Below are positions 2,426 through 63,638 of a stretch of DNA of 64,000 nt, piece by piece. The notes beneath the pieces are model-generated. The model made no database searches and was not told where the DNA came from. It worked only from the letters and a program-made list of their open reading frames with translations. Numbering within the stretch: the stretch's first letter is position 1; every line of letters starts with the position of its first letter. The position numbers were made by a program, and so were the translations under genes. Origin of the DNA: an uncultured Clostridia bacterium (GTDB lineage Bacteria > Bacillota > Clostridia > Oscillospirales > CAG-272); assembly GCA_944393415.1 (NCBI GenBank), contig CALYAD010000053.1, forward strand, positions 1 through 64,000, read 5' to 3'.

Positions 2426-2486
2426 GCGAACGATACTCCGTTACATATTGTTAAATAGGAAATTTTTTCCCTCCAAAAACTTTTCC

Positions 2487-2541
2487 CAGAGTAACGCTGC
2501 GCGTGTCCCGGCGCTCGCTGAAGTCGGGAAAAACGGAGAAG
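2487..2541 (+). repeat. degenerate copy of the 86-bp palindromic repeat
   Basis: The segment reading CAGAGTAACGC, then CCCGGCGCTCGCTGAAGTC, then CGGAGAAGG matches the 3' two thirds of units at 13630 and 62451-62850, in the same orientation. A CTCCAAAAACTTTT motif, the complement of the gene-end element, precedes it. Confidence 0.6.
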
Positions 2542-2604
2542 GTAATATTTCTTCATAATGAAATCATTATTTAAGTTAAGGGAACTTCTATCCCTATTTT
2601 TTTA

Positions 2605-12559: not shown

Positions 12560-13441
12560 TCAGGTGAGCTTTGAGACAAATTCCTTCAAAAAATCCTTGA
12601 AACGCTCCCCAAACTCCGGATTTTTCGCCGCCTGCTCCACATTGGCTATCAAAAAACCCAGCTTTGAGCCCATATCATAACGCACACCCTCAAAATCCAG
12701 CGCCATCATGCCGTCACGGCGGGCAAGCACCCGCATGGCGTCGGTCAGCTGTATCTCTCCGCCGGCGCCCGGAGGAGTTTCCCTCAGTATCTCAAATATA
12801 TCAGACGGCAGTATAACACGACCGAGCACCGCGAAATTCGTTATTATCTGGTCTCTTTTCGGCTTTTCGATCATGTCGCTGACCGTATAGACATTATCTG
12901 AAAAGGGCTTGGCGTCCAGAGTACAGTATTTCATTATAAGCTCGTCGCTTACCTGCTTTACGCCGAGAACCCCAAGTCCCGTCTTTTGATATATTTCCAT
13001 CAGCTGAGAGACGACCGGCTTTTCCGAAAATATCACGTCGTCTCCATACAGAACCGCAAACGGCTCGCCCGCAGCGAACGCCTCCGCGCGAAGGACCGCG
13101 TGCCCAAGCCCCTTTGTTTCAAGCTGGCGCATAAAGGTTATATTGACACCCCGGCATATCGCCCGAAGAGAGCTTATCAGCTCCTCCTTGCCTGACTCGC
13201 GGAGCTTTTCCTCGTATTCAGGGGAGTAATCGAAATAGTCCTCGATCGCACCCTTCCCGCGTCCCGTAATTATAAGTATATCCGTTATGCCGCTTTTTGC
13301 GGCTTCCTCAACAAGATACGATATGGCGGGCCTGTCCACTATCGGAAGCATTTCCTTCGGTACCGCTCTGGCTATGGGAAGCATCCTTGTGCCGAGTCCC
13401 GCCGCCGGGATGACCGCCTTTGTTACTTTTTTTATTTCCAC
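12560..13441 (-). CDS. galU: UTP-glucose-1-phosphate uridylyltransferase
   Basis: This 293-residue nucleotidyltransferase makes UDP-glucose from UTP and glucose 1-phosphate. It shows the N-terminal PAAGLGTRMLPIARAVPKEM signature, VLYGDDVIF, and GGEIQLTDAM. Start is GTG (at 13441), with GGAAGGAAAACTCA in front. It heads the group galU, dCMP deaminase and membrane-anchored protein. UDP-glucose would feed cell-envelope glycans, glycolipids or galactose metabolism. Upstream is a repeat-rich spacer of about 400 bases with no clear promoter. Confidence 0.95.
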   Translation of the reverse strand: MEIKKVTKAVIPAAGLGTRMLPIARAVPKEMLPIVDRPAISYLVEEAAKSGITDILIITGRGKGAIEDYFDYSPEYEEKLRESGKEELISSLRAICRGVNITFMRQLETKGLGHAVLRAEAFAAGEPFAVLYGDDVIFSEKPVVSQLMEIYQKTGLGVLGVKQVSDELIMKYCTLDAKPFSDNVYTVSDMIEKPKRDQIITNFAVLGRVILPSDIFEILRETPPGAGGEIQLTDAMRVLARRDGMMALDFEGVRYDMGSKLGFLIANVEQAAKNPEFGERFKDFLKEFVSKLT

Positions 13442-13629
13442 TGAGTTTTCCTTCCGGTTAACAATTAAACATTTAATATAAATATTATATTACACGCGCG
13501 GCTCTTCTTCAACCGGTACGGCGAATATTTAAAAAAAATGTTACATAAAACCGATTATAGTCCCATTTATTTCCCTCAAAAACTTTTCTTAAAAGGATAT
13601 ATGATTGAATCAGTCTAAGCGTGTTATTG

Positions 13630-13716
13630 CATCTTCGCCTCCGGCTTTTTGTAAGCTCAGAGAAACGCGGCGCACCTCCCGGCGCTCCGCTGAAGTCCGG
13701 AGAAGTCGGATACGGC
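13630..13716 (+). repeat. dispersed 86-bp palindromic repeat, solitary copy
   Basis: CATCTTCGCCTCCGGC at the start and GTCCGGAGAAGTCGGATACGG at the end match the units at 62451-62850. The outer ends are complementary (CTCCGG/CCGGAG), so a transcript could fold into one closed structure. Confidence 0.8.
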
Positions 13717-13768
13717 GACGAAACCTCACTTCGGACTTATCCTCTCCAGAGAAATTTTGGGGAGGTTT

Positions 13769-13836
13769 CAGGAACCCTTTTTATAAAAAGGGTTCCTGAG
13801 AAAAAGGGGAACTTTTTGAAAAAAGTTCCCCCTTTT
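13769..13836 (-). terminator. double hairpin between galU and the DUF4965 gene
   Basis: Two inverted repeats lie next to each other: CAGGAACCCTTTT/AAAAGGGTTCCTG at 13769-13798, and AAAAGGGGAACTTTT/AAAAGTTCCCCCTTTT at 13802-13836. Read from the minus gene (stop at 13858) they follow AGTTTTTGAAGGGG, the same order as at 18350, 41280 and 62890. They probably end the DUF4965 transcript. Confidence 0.75.
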
Positions 13837-13857
13837 AAATCCCCTTCAAAAACTATT

Positions 13858-15795
13858 CTACTTTAAAAGTACTTTCCTGCTCTTTTCACGGAAGTCCTTT
13901 TCCATAAGCTTGATAAACAGCCCTCCCTGTACGCTCCTGTGCTGGAAGTGTTCCATAAGAGAGGTAACGGAATCATACCAGTCGTTCATCGGTACCCGTG
14001 ACGGAGAGCGGTCGTATGTTCTCCAGACCGGTTCGATAAAGCGACGGAAATCGTCGTCTGATTCAAACATGGTCGCCGTCCAGACGATCCAGTCGGATTT
14101 GGTATATAACGCGCGGTTATCAAGCGGCATACCATAGGGATTTACATGGCGGAAATAACTTGCAAGCTCACTCTGTATAGCCTCGGCGGGGAAAATTCCC
14201 GTACCGAACAGCTTATCCCATACGGCGTTATATTTCAAAGAAAACGTTCCCTCTCGGTCAAATGCGAGCCGGTAGCTTCCGTCTCCGTTTTTGGCGGTAT
14301 CAAGCCAGACGCGCGCCATTTCCCTTGCTTTTTTCAGATAAGACTCGGCTTTGCGCTTGGCCCCAAGCATCCGGAAAATGATTGAAAGACCCGCAAGTCC
14401 CATTATCGCCTTAAGCGAAAGATTGCAGTTGTGAGCAAGATGTCCGGCAAAGTCGTCTGTGCATAGCTGGTTTTCGGGATCCTGACCGTATTCGATAAGA
14501 TATTTCGCCCACTGCTCAAGAACATCTATATGCTCCCGGATGAATGAGGTGTTCCCCTGCGCGACCGCAACGGACGCTGCCATTATCAGCATATTTCCGC
14601 ATTCCTCGACCGGCATCTGCATCTCCATAGGATGCTTTCCGTCCTTTTCGCCGTAATACTGTCCGTTAAGAATAGGGTATCGTCCGGCGTCGTGCGGCGC
14701 GAAGTCATACGGCCAATTCTCGCTTGCGGCAAACCTGAATATCGGACGCATCATGCCTTTGACAAATTCGGGGTTATAATGAAGAAACATCGGTATAGAC
14801 GGATAGCTCACATCCACTGTAGCCGCGCAGCCGTTGGAAAAGCACTCCTTTGAAACGAAAAGCAGCTGACCATCCTCGTCACACGCGGTCTTGTGAGCCG
14901 CGAAAACCTGGCGGTAGGCAAGCGAAAGCAGCTCGGCGTACTGTTCTCCTCCTGCTCTGCAGGCGTCTATATAAAGCTTATCCGAAAATTCCCGACATCT
15001 TTTTACCAACCTGTCATAGGACGCCGCCGCCTTTTCTATCGCCATTTCAATGGTCATTCCGTCGCGGTTCCACCAAGAGGAGAGCTTTTTGCCGAAATAG
15101 ATAATACTGTTGATATCATCATAGGCAAACATTATCAGCGCCTCTCCCTCAGCCGACGCGGTAAGAGATGTAAGCTCGGTTTTTTTGCCGTCATCGCTTG
15201 CATATTTCGTTTTTCCGGCAGTAACGGAAGCCCCTTTTCCCTTAGCCGCGAGATAAAAATATCCCCAGTCTATACGCACGTCGTCTCCGGAACGGTTAAG
15301 TACATTTTGCTCGGAATTGCCCATACGCATGCACGGTATACCGGAAATATCCGCCTCCGACGCGACTACCGGCGACTGACCGGCCTTGTCAAGACAGATC
15401 TCTTCCGATACAGAAACGGTAAATCCGACGGAATGCTTTGCGCTGTCAACGGATTCGTATGTAAGCTTAAGATAGCTCACGGGACGGCTGACCAGATCAG
15501 GATCGTCCGGGAGCAGCGGAGTCAGGAAGAACGCTTTTATCCTTACCATCCCCGCCTCAAAAACATAAGTTGTGGATAGGGCGTCGACATCAAGAGATAT
15601 CTGCTCTGCGGGAGCGTCGTCGGAGACGCCCATAAAACGAAAAATTTTACCGTCTACATTTACAAGACCTAACATTGAATTGGGCTTGCCAGTCCAATGG
15701 CAGACCGTTTTGTCTGTCAGCCTGTCGGCGGGCGACCAAACCGAAAAGTATGGGTCAACGGTAATAAGCGGTACAGAAGGTGCTCTTAGTTTCAT
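13858..15795 (-). CDS. glutaminase-domain (DUF4964/DUF4965/DUF1793) protein
   Basis: This 645-residue protein matches the GtaA-like glutaminase family. The N-terminal APSVPLITVDPYFSVWS and HWTGKPNSM belong to DUF4964, the middle contains SYPSIPMFLHYNPEFVKGM and DFAPHDAGRYPI, then DDFAGHLAHNCNLS and DNRALYTKSDWIVW near the C-terminus form an alpha/alpha-barrel. No signal peptide is present, so it is cytoplasmic, unlike the fungal extracellular enzymes. True activity (glutaminase or a glycoside hydrolase-like role) is unproven for bacterial members. It starts at MKLRAP after GAAAGGAAAAAT; ten extra codons upstream are rejected. It is a single-gene unit. Confidence 0.82.
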   Translation of the reverse strand: MKLRAPSVPLITVDPYFSVWSPADRLTDKTVCHWTGKPNSMLGLVNVDGKIFRFMGVSDDAPAEQISLDVDALSTTYVFEAGMVRIKAFFLTPLLPDDPDLVSRPVSYLKLTYESVDSAKHSVGFTVSVSEEICLDKAGQSPVVASEADISGIPCMRMGNSEQNVLNRSGDDVRIDWGYFYLAAKGKGASVTAGKTKYASDDGKKTELTSLTASAEGEALIMFAYDDINSIIYFGKKLSSWWNRDGMTIEMAIEKAAASYDRLVKRCREFSDKLYIDACRAGGEQYAELLSLAYRQVFAAHKTACDEDGQLLFVSKECFSNGCAATVDVSYPSIPMFLHYNPEFVKGMMRPIFRFAASENWPYDFAPHDAGRYPILNGQYYGEKDGKHPMEMQMPVEECGNMLIMAASVAVAQGNTSFIREHIDVLEQWAKYLIEYGQDPENQLCTDDFAGHLAHNCNLSLKAIMGLAGLSIIFRMLGAKRKAESYLKKAREMARVWLDTAKNGDGSYRLAFDREGTFSLKYNAVWDKLFGTGIFPAEAIQSELASYFRHVNPYGMPLDNRALYTKSDWIVWTATMFESDDDFRRFIEPVWRTYDRSPSRVPMNDWYDSVTSLMEHFQHRSVQGGLFIKLMEKDFREKSRKVLLK

Positions 15796-15926
15796 ATTTT
15801 TCCTTTCACGCCGCATCTGCGGCATTTTTTATTTTCAGGATGCATCACATCCATGTTTTATTGTTTATATGAAATTAATTTTAATCAGTCACCCATGCCG
15901 TCAGAGGCGGCTCAAATAGACAAGAT

Positions 15927-41267: not shown

Positions 41268-41296
41268 CTGATCAGTGGAAAAGTTTTTGAAAGTTG

Positions 41297-41369
41297 TTAA
41301 GAGAACTTTTTTCAAAAAGTTCTCTTAAACCCAAGGAACTGTCTTATAGGGACAGCTCCTTTTGTTTTT
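41297..41369 (+). terminator. tandem terminators after coaW
   Basis: A near-perfect hairpin TTAAGAGAACTTTTTT/AAAAAGTTCTCTTAA spans 41297-41328, preceded by AAAAGTTTTTGAAAG. A second hairpin, AGGAACTGTC/GACAGCTCCT at 41334-41360, is followed by TTTGTTTTT. The first is another member of the GGAACTTTTTTCAAAAAGTTCC family. Confidence 0.85.
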
Positions 41370-60591: not shown

Positions 60592-60665
60592 ATACTCATA
60601 TTATTACTTTGTAGGTCAAATAAGGCGAGATCCAGCCGGACCTCATGAAAGGATTGGAGATAACC

Positions 60666-62261
60666 ATGAAAAAATCAAAAAGTTTTTTAACTGCGACATT
60701 GGTATCCGCGACTATCCTGTCAGCTTTTGCGTTACCGAGCTTTGCGAGCAACGGCAGCGCCTCCTCGAAAGAAATATCTGACTACATACCGCATATAATT
60801 ATCGGCTCTTTAGTAGTTATAGCGGCGGCGATAGCCGCGATAGTCGCGGTACGCTACAATAAGGCGAAAAAAGCCGAAGAAGAAGCAAAGGCGCAAGGTC
60901 TTGCTTCCACTAAGACTCAGGATCCTAATGTCGTGACCGACGATCCTTTCAAAACAGCTCCCGATCAGGGCAGTATAAATGATAAGCCTTCCTCCGAAGA
61001 CGCTGCCGCAAAGACTATTGAGGAACCGACGATTGCGGAATCGTCGGAAACGGCTGAAGCCGACGAGACTGACAAGATCGAAGAACCGGCCAAGACCGAG
61101 ACGCCCGACGGCGATGAAAACCCTGAACCTATCGCGGAAGCTCCCGCCGAAGCATCCGAGCATGTAACGGAAGAAGCCGTCCCCACCGAAGAGCCGACCG
61201 AAAACGGACAAGCCCCGGAATCTACCAATTCTACCGCAAAGACTATTGAGGAACCGCCGATTGCGGAATCGCCGGAAACGGCTGAAGCCACCGAGACTGA
61301 CAAGACCGAAGAACCGGCCAAGACCGAGACGCCCGACGGCGATGAAAACCCTGAACCTATCGCGGAAGCTCCCGCCGAAGCATCCGAGCCTGTAACGGAA
61401 GAAGCCGTCCCCACCGAAGAGCCGACCGAAAACGGACAAGCCCCGGAACCGACTGAGTCTACCGCACAAACTCTTGAGAAACCGCCGATTACGGAATCGC
61501 CGGAAAAAGCTTCCGCTGCTGAAACTAAGACAGACGACTTAAAGCCCGGAGAGTTCAGAGACCCTGAGACCGGATGTATATATACATATAACGCGGAAGG
61601 TCTTCCCGTAGCTCCGGACGGAATGGTTATCCGTTACAAATGGAGCTTCCTCGGACGTCTGATCAGCGCTGACAATACCGTTAAGTACCGTTACATGACG
61701 CTTCGCCGCGTGTTTCTTTCATATAAAAAAGTGCGGTCAAACGTCAGCTGGAATTTTGACAGCTACTTCTACGGAAGAAAATGTCTCGCTAAAATCAAGG
61801 TAAGAGGCAAAAACCTTGTGGTATATTTCAATATCGCGCCCGAAACAATGGAGGGTACAAAGTATCTCGGCAAGGACGTCTCCTCTGTCTCGAGATATAA
61901 AACCGTTCCGTTCGCTTACCAGATTAACGGCGAAAGGAAGCTGCATTACGCAATAGAGCTTATCAGACAGCTGCTTGATGGCGTTGAATCGGAAGAGCCT
62001 GATTTCATCACTCCCGGACAGGCTCAGTACGCCATACCTTATGAGGAGTTCGGAGACCTCTTCCGCAAGGGTTATATTAAAATCAACAGCTTCCTTGCCG
62101 TAGACCGCTCGACCGTAGTCCCCGCTGACGATGACGACGACGAGCCGCTTTCCGAAGAAGCCGAAGAGGATGTTTCAAACGATGCTGATACACCCGCCAC
62201 GACTGAAGACGTAATCCCGATAGAACCGGAAGCCTTCAACTTCACTCCGCCTAAAAAATAA
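60666..62261 (+). CDS. membrane-anchored acidic repeat protein with conserved C-terminal clostridial domain
   Basis: This 531-residue protein has a signal peptide (KKSKSFLTATL to LPSFAS, about 1-28), a second hydrophobic helix at about 42-64, then a long acidic Glu/Pro/Thr-rich part with two near-identical 76-residue repeats (from AKTIEEP...). The C-terminal domain (about 290-460) includes LSYKKVRSNVSWNFDSYFYG, RKCLAKIKVRGKNLVVYFNI and TVPFAYQINGERKLHYAIEL. I recognise this pattern as a recurring uncharacterised clostridial domain. Topology is predicted as N-out, with repeats and domain in the cytoplasm. Function is unknown. ATG at 60666 follows AAAGGATTGGAG; an earlier in-frame ATG overlaps it. 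Confidence 0.82.
   Translation: MKKSKSFLTATLVSATILSAFALPSFASNGSASSKEISDYIPHIIIGSLVVIAAAIAAIVAVRYNKAKKAEEEAKAQGLASTKTQDPNVVTDDPFKTAPDQGSINDKPSSEDAAAKTIEEPTIAESSETAEADETDKIEEPAKTETPDGDENPEPIAEAPAEASEHVTEEAVPTEEPTENGQAPESTNSTAKTIEEPPIAESPETAEATETDKTEEPAKTETPDGDENPEPIAEAPAEASEPVTEEAVPTEEPTENGQAPEPTESTAQTLEKPPITESPEKASAAETKTDDLKPGEFRDPETGCIYTYNAEGLPVAPDGMVIRYKWSFLGRLISADNTVKYRYMTLRRVFLSYKKVRSNVSWNFDSYFYGRKCLAKIKVRGKNLVVYFNIAPETMEGTKYLGKDVSSVSRYKTVPFAYQINGERKLHYAIELIRQLLDGVESEEPDFITPGQAQYAIPYEEFGDLFRKGYIKINSFLAVDRSTVVPADDDDDEPLSEEAEEDVSNDADTPATTEDVIPIEPEAFNFTPPKK
61008..61463 (+). repeat. two tandem 228-bp coding repeats (plus a partial third)
   Basis: Units 61008-61235 and 61236-61463 differ at about 11 positions by my reading, with a fragment from 61464 on. 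The phase is exactly 76 codons. Differences cluster at the ends, and the centre is identical, which suggests recent duplication or gene conversion. Confidence 0.9.
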
Positions 62262-62393
62262 TCTAAAATACAATATTGAATCTTTCTCAAACTTTTCAGA
62301 GAAGTTTTTGAATGGGATAAAAAGTGGGGAACTTTTTTCAAAAAGTTCCTCCTTTTTTCTCAGGAACCCTTTTTGAAAAAAAGTGTTCCTTAA
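62262..62393 (+). terminator. double hairpin after the anchored protein gene
   Basis: GGGGAACTTTTTT/AAAAAGTTCCTCC with a T run (62326-62358) and AGGAACCCTTTTT/AAAAAGTGTTCCT (62362-62390) lie after AGTTTTTGAATGGG. They are members of the gene-end hairpin family. Confidence 0.75.
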
Positions 62394-62850
62394 CCTCCCA
62401 AAAATTTCTCCGGAAAAGGTATATCTCTGATTTCAGCAGGCATGATATTCCATCTCCGCCTCCGGCTTTTTGAAAGCTCAGAGTAACGCGGTGCGCGTCC
62501 CGGCGCTCCGCTGAAGTCCGGAGAAGTCGGAGACGGAACTTTTTTCTAACCTCCCAAAAATTTCTCTAAAAAAGGTGTTTCTCTGATTTCAGCAGGCATG
62601 GTGCTTCATCTCCGCCTCCGGCTTTTTGAAAATTCGGAGTAACGCGGCGCACCTCCCGGCGCTCCGCTGAAGTCCGGAGAAATCGGAGACGGGAACTTTT
62701 TTCTAACCTCCCCAAAAATTTCTCCGGAAAAGGTGTATCTCTGATTTCAGCAGGCATGGTGTTCCATCTCCGCCTCCGGCTTTTTGAAAATTCGGAGTAA
62801 CGCGGCGCACGTCGCGGCGCTCCGCTGAAGTCCGGAGAAGTCGGAGACGG
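62394..62850 (+). repeat. three tandem repeats of about 156 bp
   Basis: Units start at 62394, 62550 and 62707. Each has CCTCCC(C)AAAAATTTCTC, then TCTGATTTCAGCAGGCATG, then the 86-bp palindromic core (62451-62536, 62607-62692, 62765-62850) with CTCCGCCTCCGGC at its start and CCGGAGAAGTCGGAGACGG at its end. The first two units are followed by GAACTTTTTTCTAA; the third is not. No gene is supported; a minus-strand open frame in the repeats is not credible. Confidence 0.9.
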
Positions 62851-62880
62851 TGATGTAATATCTTGCTTACTCAAATCCAA

Positions 62881-63020
62881 TTACTTATCCCCTCCGGAAA
62901 AGTTTTTGAGGGTTTCAGGGAACTTTTTTCAAAAAGTTCCCTGAATTAACTGAAAGGGTTCCTGAGAAAAAAGTGGAAACTTTTAAAAAGTTCCCACTTT
63001 TTTGATTTTTGTAAGAAAAG
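62881..63020. terminator. hairpins between the repeat block and rubrerythrin
   Basis: TTCAGGGAACTTTTTT/AAAAAGTTCCCTGAA (62914-62945), preceded by AAAAGTTTTTGAGGG, and AAAAGTGGAAACTTTT/AAAAAGTTCCCACTTTT (62968-63003) are strong hairpins. They can end the minus-strand rubrerythrin transcript and any plus-strand read-through. The rest of 63021-63098 shows nothing. Confidence 0.7.
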
Positions 63021-63098
63021 CTTTTGACTCAGCCCCTTTTTCATCTTCAGAACCTACAGAAAAATATTGGGAGGTCAACGAACGAAATCCGGGAAAAA

Positions 63099-63638
63099 TC
63101 AACCGAAATATCTCTTAAGCAGTCCTTCAAAAGCCCTGCCGTGTCTTGCCTCGTCGCGAGCCATTTCATGAACGGTATCATGTATGGCGTCAAGATTCGC
63201 GGCTTTTGCTCTCTTAGCGAGGTCAGCCTTGCCGGCGGTTGCGCCGTTCTCGGCGTCTACTCTCATCTGGAGATTTTTCTTAGTGGAATCAGTGACTACT
63301 TCTCCGAGCAGCTCGGCGAACTTAGCCGCATGTTCCGCTTCCTCAAACGCGGCCTTTTCCCAATACATACCGATCTCGGGATAGCCCTCGCGGAAAGCGA
63401 CTCTTGACATAGCGAGATACATACCTACCTCTGAGCATTCACCGTTGAAATTAGCGCGGAGATCCTCCTTAATATCCTCGGGAACATCCTTGGCGACGCC
63501 GACGACATGCTCAGCCGCCCAGCTCTTATCTCCGTCCTGCTTTGTAAACTTGCTGGCGGGAGCGTTGCATACCGGGCACTTCTCCGGCGCCTCGTCTCCC
63601 TCGTGTACGTATCCGCATACCTGACATACAAATTTCAT
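63099..63638 (-). CDS. reverse rubrerythrin (rubredoxin-like domain first)
   Basis: This 179-residue non-haem iron protein has an N-terminal rubredoxin-like site [20 protein letters not shown] with CPVC, then a ferritin-like diiron domain with Glu and His ligands ([48 protein letters not shown]). It reduces hydrogen peroxide in anaerobes. It follows the PerR-type gene by 25 bases, with AGGAGG before the ATG, so the two form a peroxide-response unit. Confidence 0.92.

What the first reader, a model, noticed from the sequence alone, without database searches (positions are those of the whole stretch)
62394..62850. Tandem and dispersed 86-bp imperfect palindromes
Seen: three tandem copies in units of about 156 bp, plus one single copy at 13630-13716 and a degenerate one at 2487-2541, all in the same orientation. 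Each unit begins CTCCGCCTCCGG and ends CCGGAGAAGTCGGAG, which are complementary, so the unit could fold into a closed RNA. No open reading frame is convincing. Inference: a small non-autonomous mobile element or a structured RNA, expanded by tandem duplication here.
Basis: seen in the sequence. Interest (0 to 1): 0.5.

Follow-up and report, generated by a model that had tools for sequence, protein, structure and literature searches.

The report
Palindromic DNA repeats at gene ends
The bacterium carries about fifty scattered copies of a short mirror-image DNA repeat, not found in the relatives searched, that sits mostly where two genes run towards each other; it looks like a small hitch-hiking DNA element, a new example of a known kind with hints of a wider system in its bacterial family.

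Summary
Three units at 62394-62912, one copy at 13573-13764 and one remnant at 2470-2542 belong to an interspersed family: 48 blastn matches in the 2.33-Mb genome (40 of 77 candidates scored), 0 of 6 congeners, and no other of 395 family genomes by covariance model.

The unit is not the 86-bp core but about 200 bp from one 16-bp inverted 'tail' to the other (fold z mean -4.4 against -1.85 for the core, 24 copies). Copies lie between convergent genes at 16 of 23 sites, against 14 of 114 ordinary gaps. Hairpins flank the tails mainly where a gene's 3' end faces the element (29 of 40 sides against 1 of 9).

A structured RNA is not supported: no covariation. A recent local duplication is doubtful. 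No target-site duplication or Y1/RAYT transposase was found.

Best reading: a species-private, REPIN/BOX-like non-autonomous repeat. Genome G051, of another genus, carries its own private interior, a covarying four-way-junction repeat, between similar hairpin-tail ends.

The parts
62362..62390 (.). Hairpin A (AGGAACCC..GTGTTCCT), after the 3' end of the frame 60645-62261
   Evidence: sequence; listed for C53 62437 L; similar hairpins beside other copies
62395..62410 (+). Left tail (terminal inverted repeat) CTCCCAAAAATTTCTC of the array
62437..62537 (+). Core copy 1 of the array
   Evidence: nhmmer profile, score 105.6
62551..62566 (+). Inner tail between core 1 and core 2, after the shared junction
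62593..62692 (+). Core copy 2
   Evidence: score 101.5
62709..62724 (+). Inner tail between core 2 and core 3
62751..62851 (+). Core copy 3, the only one of the three with a full right flank
   Evidence: score 106.0; sequence
62897..62912 (-). Right tail CCCTCAAAAACTTTTC, inverse of the left tail
62918..62941 (.). Hairpin B GGGAACTTTTTTCAAAAAGTTCCC, on the side facing the 3' end of the rubrerythrin-like gene 63099-63638(-)
   Evidence: pattern with up to 1 mismatch at 45 genome positions, 0 in 6 congeners
62299..62350 (.). Neighbouring tail (62299-62314, -) plus hairpin (62327-62350) without a core; the only hairpin here that passes the terminator scan
13573..13588 (+). Left tail of the single copy; no hairpin outside it (this side faces a gene 5' end)
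13617..13716 (+). Core of the single copy
   Evidence: score 100.7
13749..13764 (-). Right tail of the single copy
   Evidence: 32 nt beyond the core end
13771..13858 (.). Hairpin A (13771-13796), hairpin B (13807-13830) and a further tail (13843-13858), beside the 3' end of the gene 13858-15825(-)
2470..2542 (+). Remnant: tail 2470-2485 and partial core 2485-2542
41278..41324 (.). Tail (41278-41293, -) plus hairpin B-like palindrome (41301-41324) without a core

Best explanation
A species-private, non-coding, dispersed palindromic repeat about 200 bp long, with two conserved 16-bp inverted tails around a GC-rich interior, the same plan as REPINs and BOX elements. Shown: copy number, inverted tails, palindrome of the whole element, lodging mostly between convergent genes, hairpins beside the tails mainly on sides facing gene 3' ends, absence from the relatives searched. 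Inferred: it spread as DNA, copied as a symmetric hairpin or cruciform unit that an enzyme acting in trans, or template switching and recombination between copies, carries to new sites. Gene ends are where such insertions do least harm and where hairpins already stand. The triple array is probably a composite unit whose junction also occurs at other sites, rather than a recent local duplication.
For: 48 blastn matches and 51 profile places in the DNA fetched. 0 of 6 congeners and, by covariance model, the own genome alone among 395 of the family. One tail type (CCCAAAAA..) at 71 genome positions against 1 for the pattern read backwards. Tail-to-tail fold z mean -4.4, core alone -1.85, 24 of the 37 copies scoring 60 or more. 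Convergent gaps at 16 of 23 sites with both neighbours called, against 14 of 114 ordinary gaps of 100 bp or more, Fisher p 5e-8. Hairpin on 29 of 40 tallied sides facing a 3' end, 1 of 9 facing a 5' end, p 0.001. 32 aligned copies 68-98% alike (mean 85%), so more than one round of spread. 7 of 8 neighbour junctions shared.
Against: No excess of direct repeats outside the tails (mean 1.08 against 0.97 when re-paired, 37% of shuffles as high). No Y1/RAYT transposase; no inward-facing pair of listed tails 0.2-5 kb apart and no transposase among 7 frames in two candidate loci. No empty site: around the rubrerythrin gene 5 congeners show other neighbouring sequence. Hairpin-plus-tail modules also occur without a core in this genome (41278-41324) and in other genera, so tails may belong to a gene-end signal rather than to the element. 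Array mates are more alike than the median pair.
Confidence: 0.6

Rival explanations
1. A functional gene-end device: paired hairpins and tails stop or stabilise transcripts from both convergent genes (or take up supercoils, as proposed for E. coli BIMEs, recalled), and the core is filler or insulator kept by selection.
For: Convergent bias; hairpins follow gene 3' ends; exact hairpin-plus-tail pattern in 8 of 59 family genomes including this one, 0 for the pattern read backwards.
Against: The hairpins next to the array lack the T-run of an intrinsic terminator, and the terminator scan is at chance (2 found, 1.7 expected). The core is absent from congeners and so is hairpin B. SPRITE, RUP, BOX and IS elements show the same convergent bias, read there as tolerance (PMC3049150, passages). 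In G051 hairpins do not follow gene 3' ends.
Confidence: 0.25
2. A structured RNA (3'-UTR module or small RNA).
For: Stable predicted folds; several copies begin shortly after stop codons, hence perhaps transcribed (distances).
Against: No covariation in 32 copies: 1 of 15 pairs doubly changed, 294 of 500 shuffles as high (the covariation score itself was reached by 23 of 500); RNAalifold covariation term 0; no Rfam match at gathering threshold in the window or in the elements of 20 further loci; all 43 matches listed at E <= 5 lie below their family cut-off.
Confidence: 0.07
3. REP/REPIN moved by a RAYT (Y1 tyrosine transposase).
For: Symmetric doublet of 16-nt ends around a variable spacer, clusters, private to one species: the REPIN plan (PMC3116915, passages).
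Against: PF01797 gives 0 matches in this 96.7% complete genome, while the control rings in 5 of 14 genomes.
Confidence: 0.05
4. Simple local tandem duplication or chance low-complexity repeat.
For: The 6 array pairs tested sit in the 57th to 97th percentile of identity of all pairs.
Against: Nearest relatives lie at other sites for 9 of 9 array members; shared junctions at 7 of 8 neighbour pairs; E-values to 2.8e-51 elsewhere in the genome.
Confidence: 0.03

Closest known systems
REPINs (REP doublets forming hairpins), Pseudomonas and others (PMC3116915, abstract and passages)
   Same: Two short conserved inverted ends around a variable spacer, dispersed in extragenic space, whole unit folds, clusters.
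   Different: No RAYT/Y1 transposase in this genome; unit about 200 bp with a long GC-rich core; own copies show no compensatory changes, which that paper calls common in REPINs.
BOX and SPRITE elements of Streptococcus pneumoniae (PMC3049150, passages)
   Same: Modular with a variable number of inner units (BOX), terminal inverted repeats, clusters, terminator-like hairpins (SPRITE), over-represented between convergent genes; for SPRITE too no TSD could be established.
   Different: No sequence relation was tested; here similar hairpin-tail ends recur in other genera while the interiors compared differ.
MITEs of prokaryotes (PMC10969869, two passages; the TSD criterion is recalled)
   Same: Short, non-coding, terminal inverted repeats, multicopy, intergenic.
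   Different: No TSD and no parent insertion sequence found.
Stem-loop repeat families of bacteria such as Bcr1, ERIC, YPAL, Clop-1, Clot-1 (PMC2267715, passages)
   Same: Intergenic, tens of copies, foldable.
   Different: None of that list was compared by sequence here.

Membership tests
MITE | Terminal inverted repeats | tested here: met
   16-bp tails in inverse orientation on both sides of 24 core copies, of 37 scoring 60 or more; some of the 24 belong to arrays, so one of their tails is an inner one
MITE | Target-site duplication | tested here: not met
   mean longest flanking direct repeat 1.08 against 0.97 re-paired, 37% of 1000 shuffles as high
MITE | Parent insertion sequence with the same ends | tested here: inconclusive
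   no inward-facing pair of the 71 listed tails 0.2-5 kb apart (only one tail type was listed); two loci with hairpin B about 2 kb apart hold a sodium:solute symporter and a MazE-like frame among 7 frames, no transposase
REPIN | Symmetric doublet of conserved short ends that folds as one hairpin | tested here: met
   tail-to-tail z mean -4.4, range -1.4 to -7.3
REPIN | RAYT (Y1_Tnp, PF01797) in the genome | tested here: not met
   0 matches; control rings in 5 of 14; genome 96.7% complete
BOX/SPRITE-like interspersed repeat | Multicopy, intergenic, over-represented between convergent genes | tested here: met
   16 of 23 sites against 14 of 114 gaps
BOX (the pneumococcal family itself) | boxA, boxB, boxC sequence similarity | not tested
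   no BOX sequence was fetched
Structured RNA family | Covariation of the stem | tested here: not met
   (1 of 15 pairs; 294 of 500 shuffles as high)
Structured RNA family | Match to a curated RNA family | tested here: not met
   no Rfam match at gathering threshold in the window; in 20 further loci only a tRNA outside the element
Intrinsic terminator (hairpins A and B) | T-run directly after the stem | tested here: not met
   in 62200-63150 the scan finds only the hairpin at 62326-62351, once per strand, at chance level; hairpins elsewhere were not scanned

The most novel reading that the evidence does not exclude
A family-wide system in which a hairpin-plus-tail bracket is kept between genera while the interior is replaced by a new palindrome private to each species and multiplied within it: here a GC-rich core with about 50 copies, in genome G051 (another genus) a 150-nt four-way-junction repeat with at least 13 copies that keeps its shape through double changes at 26 of 50 pairs. 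The brackets would be what the copying machinery reads, and folding of single-stranded or cruciform DNA would be what is selected in the interior, without a RAYT at least in the window species.
Probability: 0.2. Interest if true: 0.65.

Novelty: new variant of a known kind. Interest (0 to 1): 0.42.

Why it matters
Small dispersed palindromes are common in bacteria, but how families without a RAYT spread is open. Similar hairpin-tail ends with private interiors in two genera would offer a natural comparison: what stays (the ends) should be what is recognised, what turns over (the interior) should be free or shape-selected. If that fails, the finding is still a plain addition to the catalogue: a private gene-end repeat at which this draft assembly often breaks.

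Tried and rejected
Rubrerythrin neighbourhood in congeners for an empty site: 7 genomes searched, flanks of 6 loci from 5 congeners printed; neighbouring sequence differs and no site can be compared. RAYT search: none. Phage and plasmid collections: no match for 62394-62912. Core pattern in the 84,980 genomes of genome contigs: one exact hit in an Actinomycetota MAG, which I take as chance without reading it; 0 in viral contigs. Those four searches may leave out records of the own genome or one very near it. TSD test negative. Autonomous element between hairpins B at C28:32921/35037 and C33:31651/33575: 7 frames scanned, a symporter and a MazE-like frame, no transposase.

The first profile mixed both strands because the core is self-complementary; redone with one strand per place. 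The gene-end rule does not carry over to G051: there 4 of 9 sides facing a 3' end and 5 of 13 facing a 5' end have such a hairpin (hairpins with a bulge are missed by that rule), and 8 of 9 G051 sites with both neighbours called are codirectional. Dropped rows: 86 sides of 43 cores were listed and 37 not tallied (inner side of an array, no gene call, no tail, or too little sequence). In one search, 48 of 51 places (score 28 or more) fold into 41 sites, 18 of them left out for want of a gene on one side; two of the 16 convergent sites (C23) may share one gap. Identical or near-identical copies at contig ends (C30:1-100, C43:32818-32917) may be one locus counted twice. All gene calls are my own codon-score calls.

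The seven genomes are exactly the seven non-own hits, so 7 of 7 there is not a frequency; 51 of 59 genomes lack the exact bracket. One search scored 40 of 77 first-look candidates in the own genome; one search scored 2 per genome; searches scored 8 to 10 per genome with strict filters. The pattern covers the CCCAAAAA.. tail type and misses the CCCTCAAAAAC.. type. In one search the 36 positions allow 2 mismatches, two overlap, and some are nearer to hairpin B.

PMC12306157 (abstract) and PMC1525189 (abstract) were looked at; papers not named in this report were seen as search listings only.

Full report
What is there. The array at 62394-62912 holds three cores (62437-62537, 62593-62692, 62751-62851), their 153-nt units 156 and 158 bp apart. 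A single full copy lies at 13573-13764 and a remnant at 2470-2542. The window is contig C53 of a 2.33-Mb genome in 76 contigs. One query unit of 121 bp finds 48 matches at E <= 0.001 there (40 of 77 candidates scored) and a one-strand profile finds 51 places in the DNA fetched; the 48 places scoring 28 or more make 41 separate sites. Many lie within a few hundred bases of contig ends, so the assembly tends to break at them and the true number is uncertain.

The real unit. Flanks of the copies (the middle of that printout was cut) show homology beyond the core: a tail CTCCCAAAAATTTCTC or CCCTCAAAAACTTTTC on each side in inverse orientation, then in many copies a perfect or near-perfect hairpin (A: CAGGAACCCTTTTT..AAAAAGGGTTCCTG; B: CAGGGAACTTTTTTCAAAAAGTTCCCTG). 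Folding tail to tail gives z -4.4 on average for 24 core copies with both tails found (range -1.4 to -7.3), the core alone -1.85. Some of the 24 belong to arrays. The stretches between tail and core come in several interchangeable variants (read by eye), so copies look like mosaics.

Where it sits. Of 41 sites, 23 have a called gene on both sides: 16 convergent, 5 codirectional, 2 divergent. In 304 kb of the same genome (12 sampled stretches and the window) gaps of 100 bp or more are 14 convergent, 76 codirectional, 24 divergent (Fisher p 5e-8). Gene calls are my own codon-score calls, not an annotation. Tails are found on both kinds of side, but a hairpin next to the tail was found on 29 of 40 tallied sides that face a gene's 3' end and 1 of 9 that face a 5' end (p 0.001). 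In the window the copy at 13573-13764 shows this well: no hairpin on the side of the 5' end of 12560-13441(-), two on the side of the 3' end of 13858-15825(-). The hairpins next to the array do not pass the usual rule for intrinsic terminators, lacking a T-run.

RNA or DNA. For the window family covariation is absent: 1 of 15 pairs doubly changed in 32 copies, 294 of 500 shuffles as high (the composite covariation score is somewhat high, reached by 23 of 500), RNAalifold covariation term 0, no Rfam match at gathering threshold. That leaves the palindrome most simply as a property of the DNA unit. There is no sign of target-site duplication, no Y1 transposase and no comparable empty site, so movement is inferred from dispersal and copy divergence, not seen.

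The tandem array. The six array pairs tested are more alike than the median pair (57th to 97th percentile), which fits duplication in place; but for 9 of 9 members tested, in the arrays of C53, C31, C35 and C38, the best match lies elsewhere (one a near tie; three point to one copy with an internal deletion, L025, compared over fewer columns). Seven of eight neighbour junctions in the genome share GACGG followed by a short variant of (G)AACTTTTTTCT. In the C53 array and in C38 the hairpin that stands at this junction in C31, C2, C23 and C43 is missing. I read this as composite units copied between sites and then trimmed, rather than a duplication made here.

Relatives. The core is absent from 6 congeners and from the other 394 family genomes scanned by covariance model (few candidates scored per genome). 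Hairpin B too is absent from the 6 congeners at up to 1 mismatch. But the exact pattern tail + hairpin B occurs in 8 of 59 family genomes, one genome per genus and this one included, with no hit for the pattern read backwards. One of these, G051, with the exact pattern at one place, holds between such ends a different interior that is itself multicopy: the 281-bp query, ends included, has 29 matches in G051. I read 13 copies: a 145-154-nt four-way junction with z -7.1 to -12.6 in the four copies folded and double changes at 26 of 50 pairs, 0 of 500 shuffles as high (the structure was derived from this same alignment, and slid controls give 3 to 15). In four copies (L130-L133) much of one arm is replaced by another complementary sequence, and in two (L129, L133) the interior is inverted relative to its ends. 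A covariance model of it hits G051 alone among 395 genomes. Its ends are variants of the bracket, and a strict hairpin stands on only 9 of 22 tallied sides. Its sites are mostly codirectional (8 of 9), unlike the window family. So two genera have similar ends and each its own private palindromic interior. Whether the ends come from common descent of an element, or from a common style of gene-end hairpin, is not settled.

Comparison. By plan this is closest to REPINs (inverted conserved 16-mers around a variable spacer; PMC3116915 passages) and to BOX/SPRITE (PMC3049150 passages), but the RAYT test fails and TSDs were not found, so I file it as REPIN/BOX-like, not as a REPIN or a proven MITE. 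The rows listed by paper searches showed no description of such repeats in this group; they are the top rows only, of open-licence PMC papers only.

Noticed in passing
L078:376-520, L122-L133 (genome G051, other genus of the family): At least 13 copies of a ~150-nt four-way-junction intergenic repeat with strong compensatory changes (26 of 50 pairs), found in G051 alone among 395 genomes, flanked by hairpins and tails similar to those of the window element; for 11 of 13 copies a gene start called by me lies 80-130 nt from the interior.
   Followed up: partly
L129:460-606 and L133:437-587: In these two G051 copies the four-way-junction interior is inverted relative to its flanking ends.
   Followed up: no
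window 62299-62350 and 41278-41324: Tail plus hairpin modules without a core, after gene 3' ends; in the window genome the hairpin B pattern occurs at 45 positions, and in several of the 20 loci read no core stands beside it.
   Followed up: partly
G000 contig C31 (right end, L010) and C74 (left end, L018); also C43 (L008) and C22 (L036): Half of a hairpin or a broken tail is abutted by the same foreign sequence at two places each, as if insertion sequences had entered there; REPs are known IS targets (PMC1525189, abstract). No transposase was identified.
   Followed up: no
L057 around 1100-1200 and 2700-2850 (C33): A related hairpin/tail subfamily (AGAAAACTTCTTTCAAGAAGTTTTCT with tail TTCAAGAACTTTTC) that also stands beside the divergent cores at C76 and C71.
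   Followed up: no
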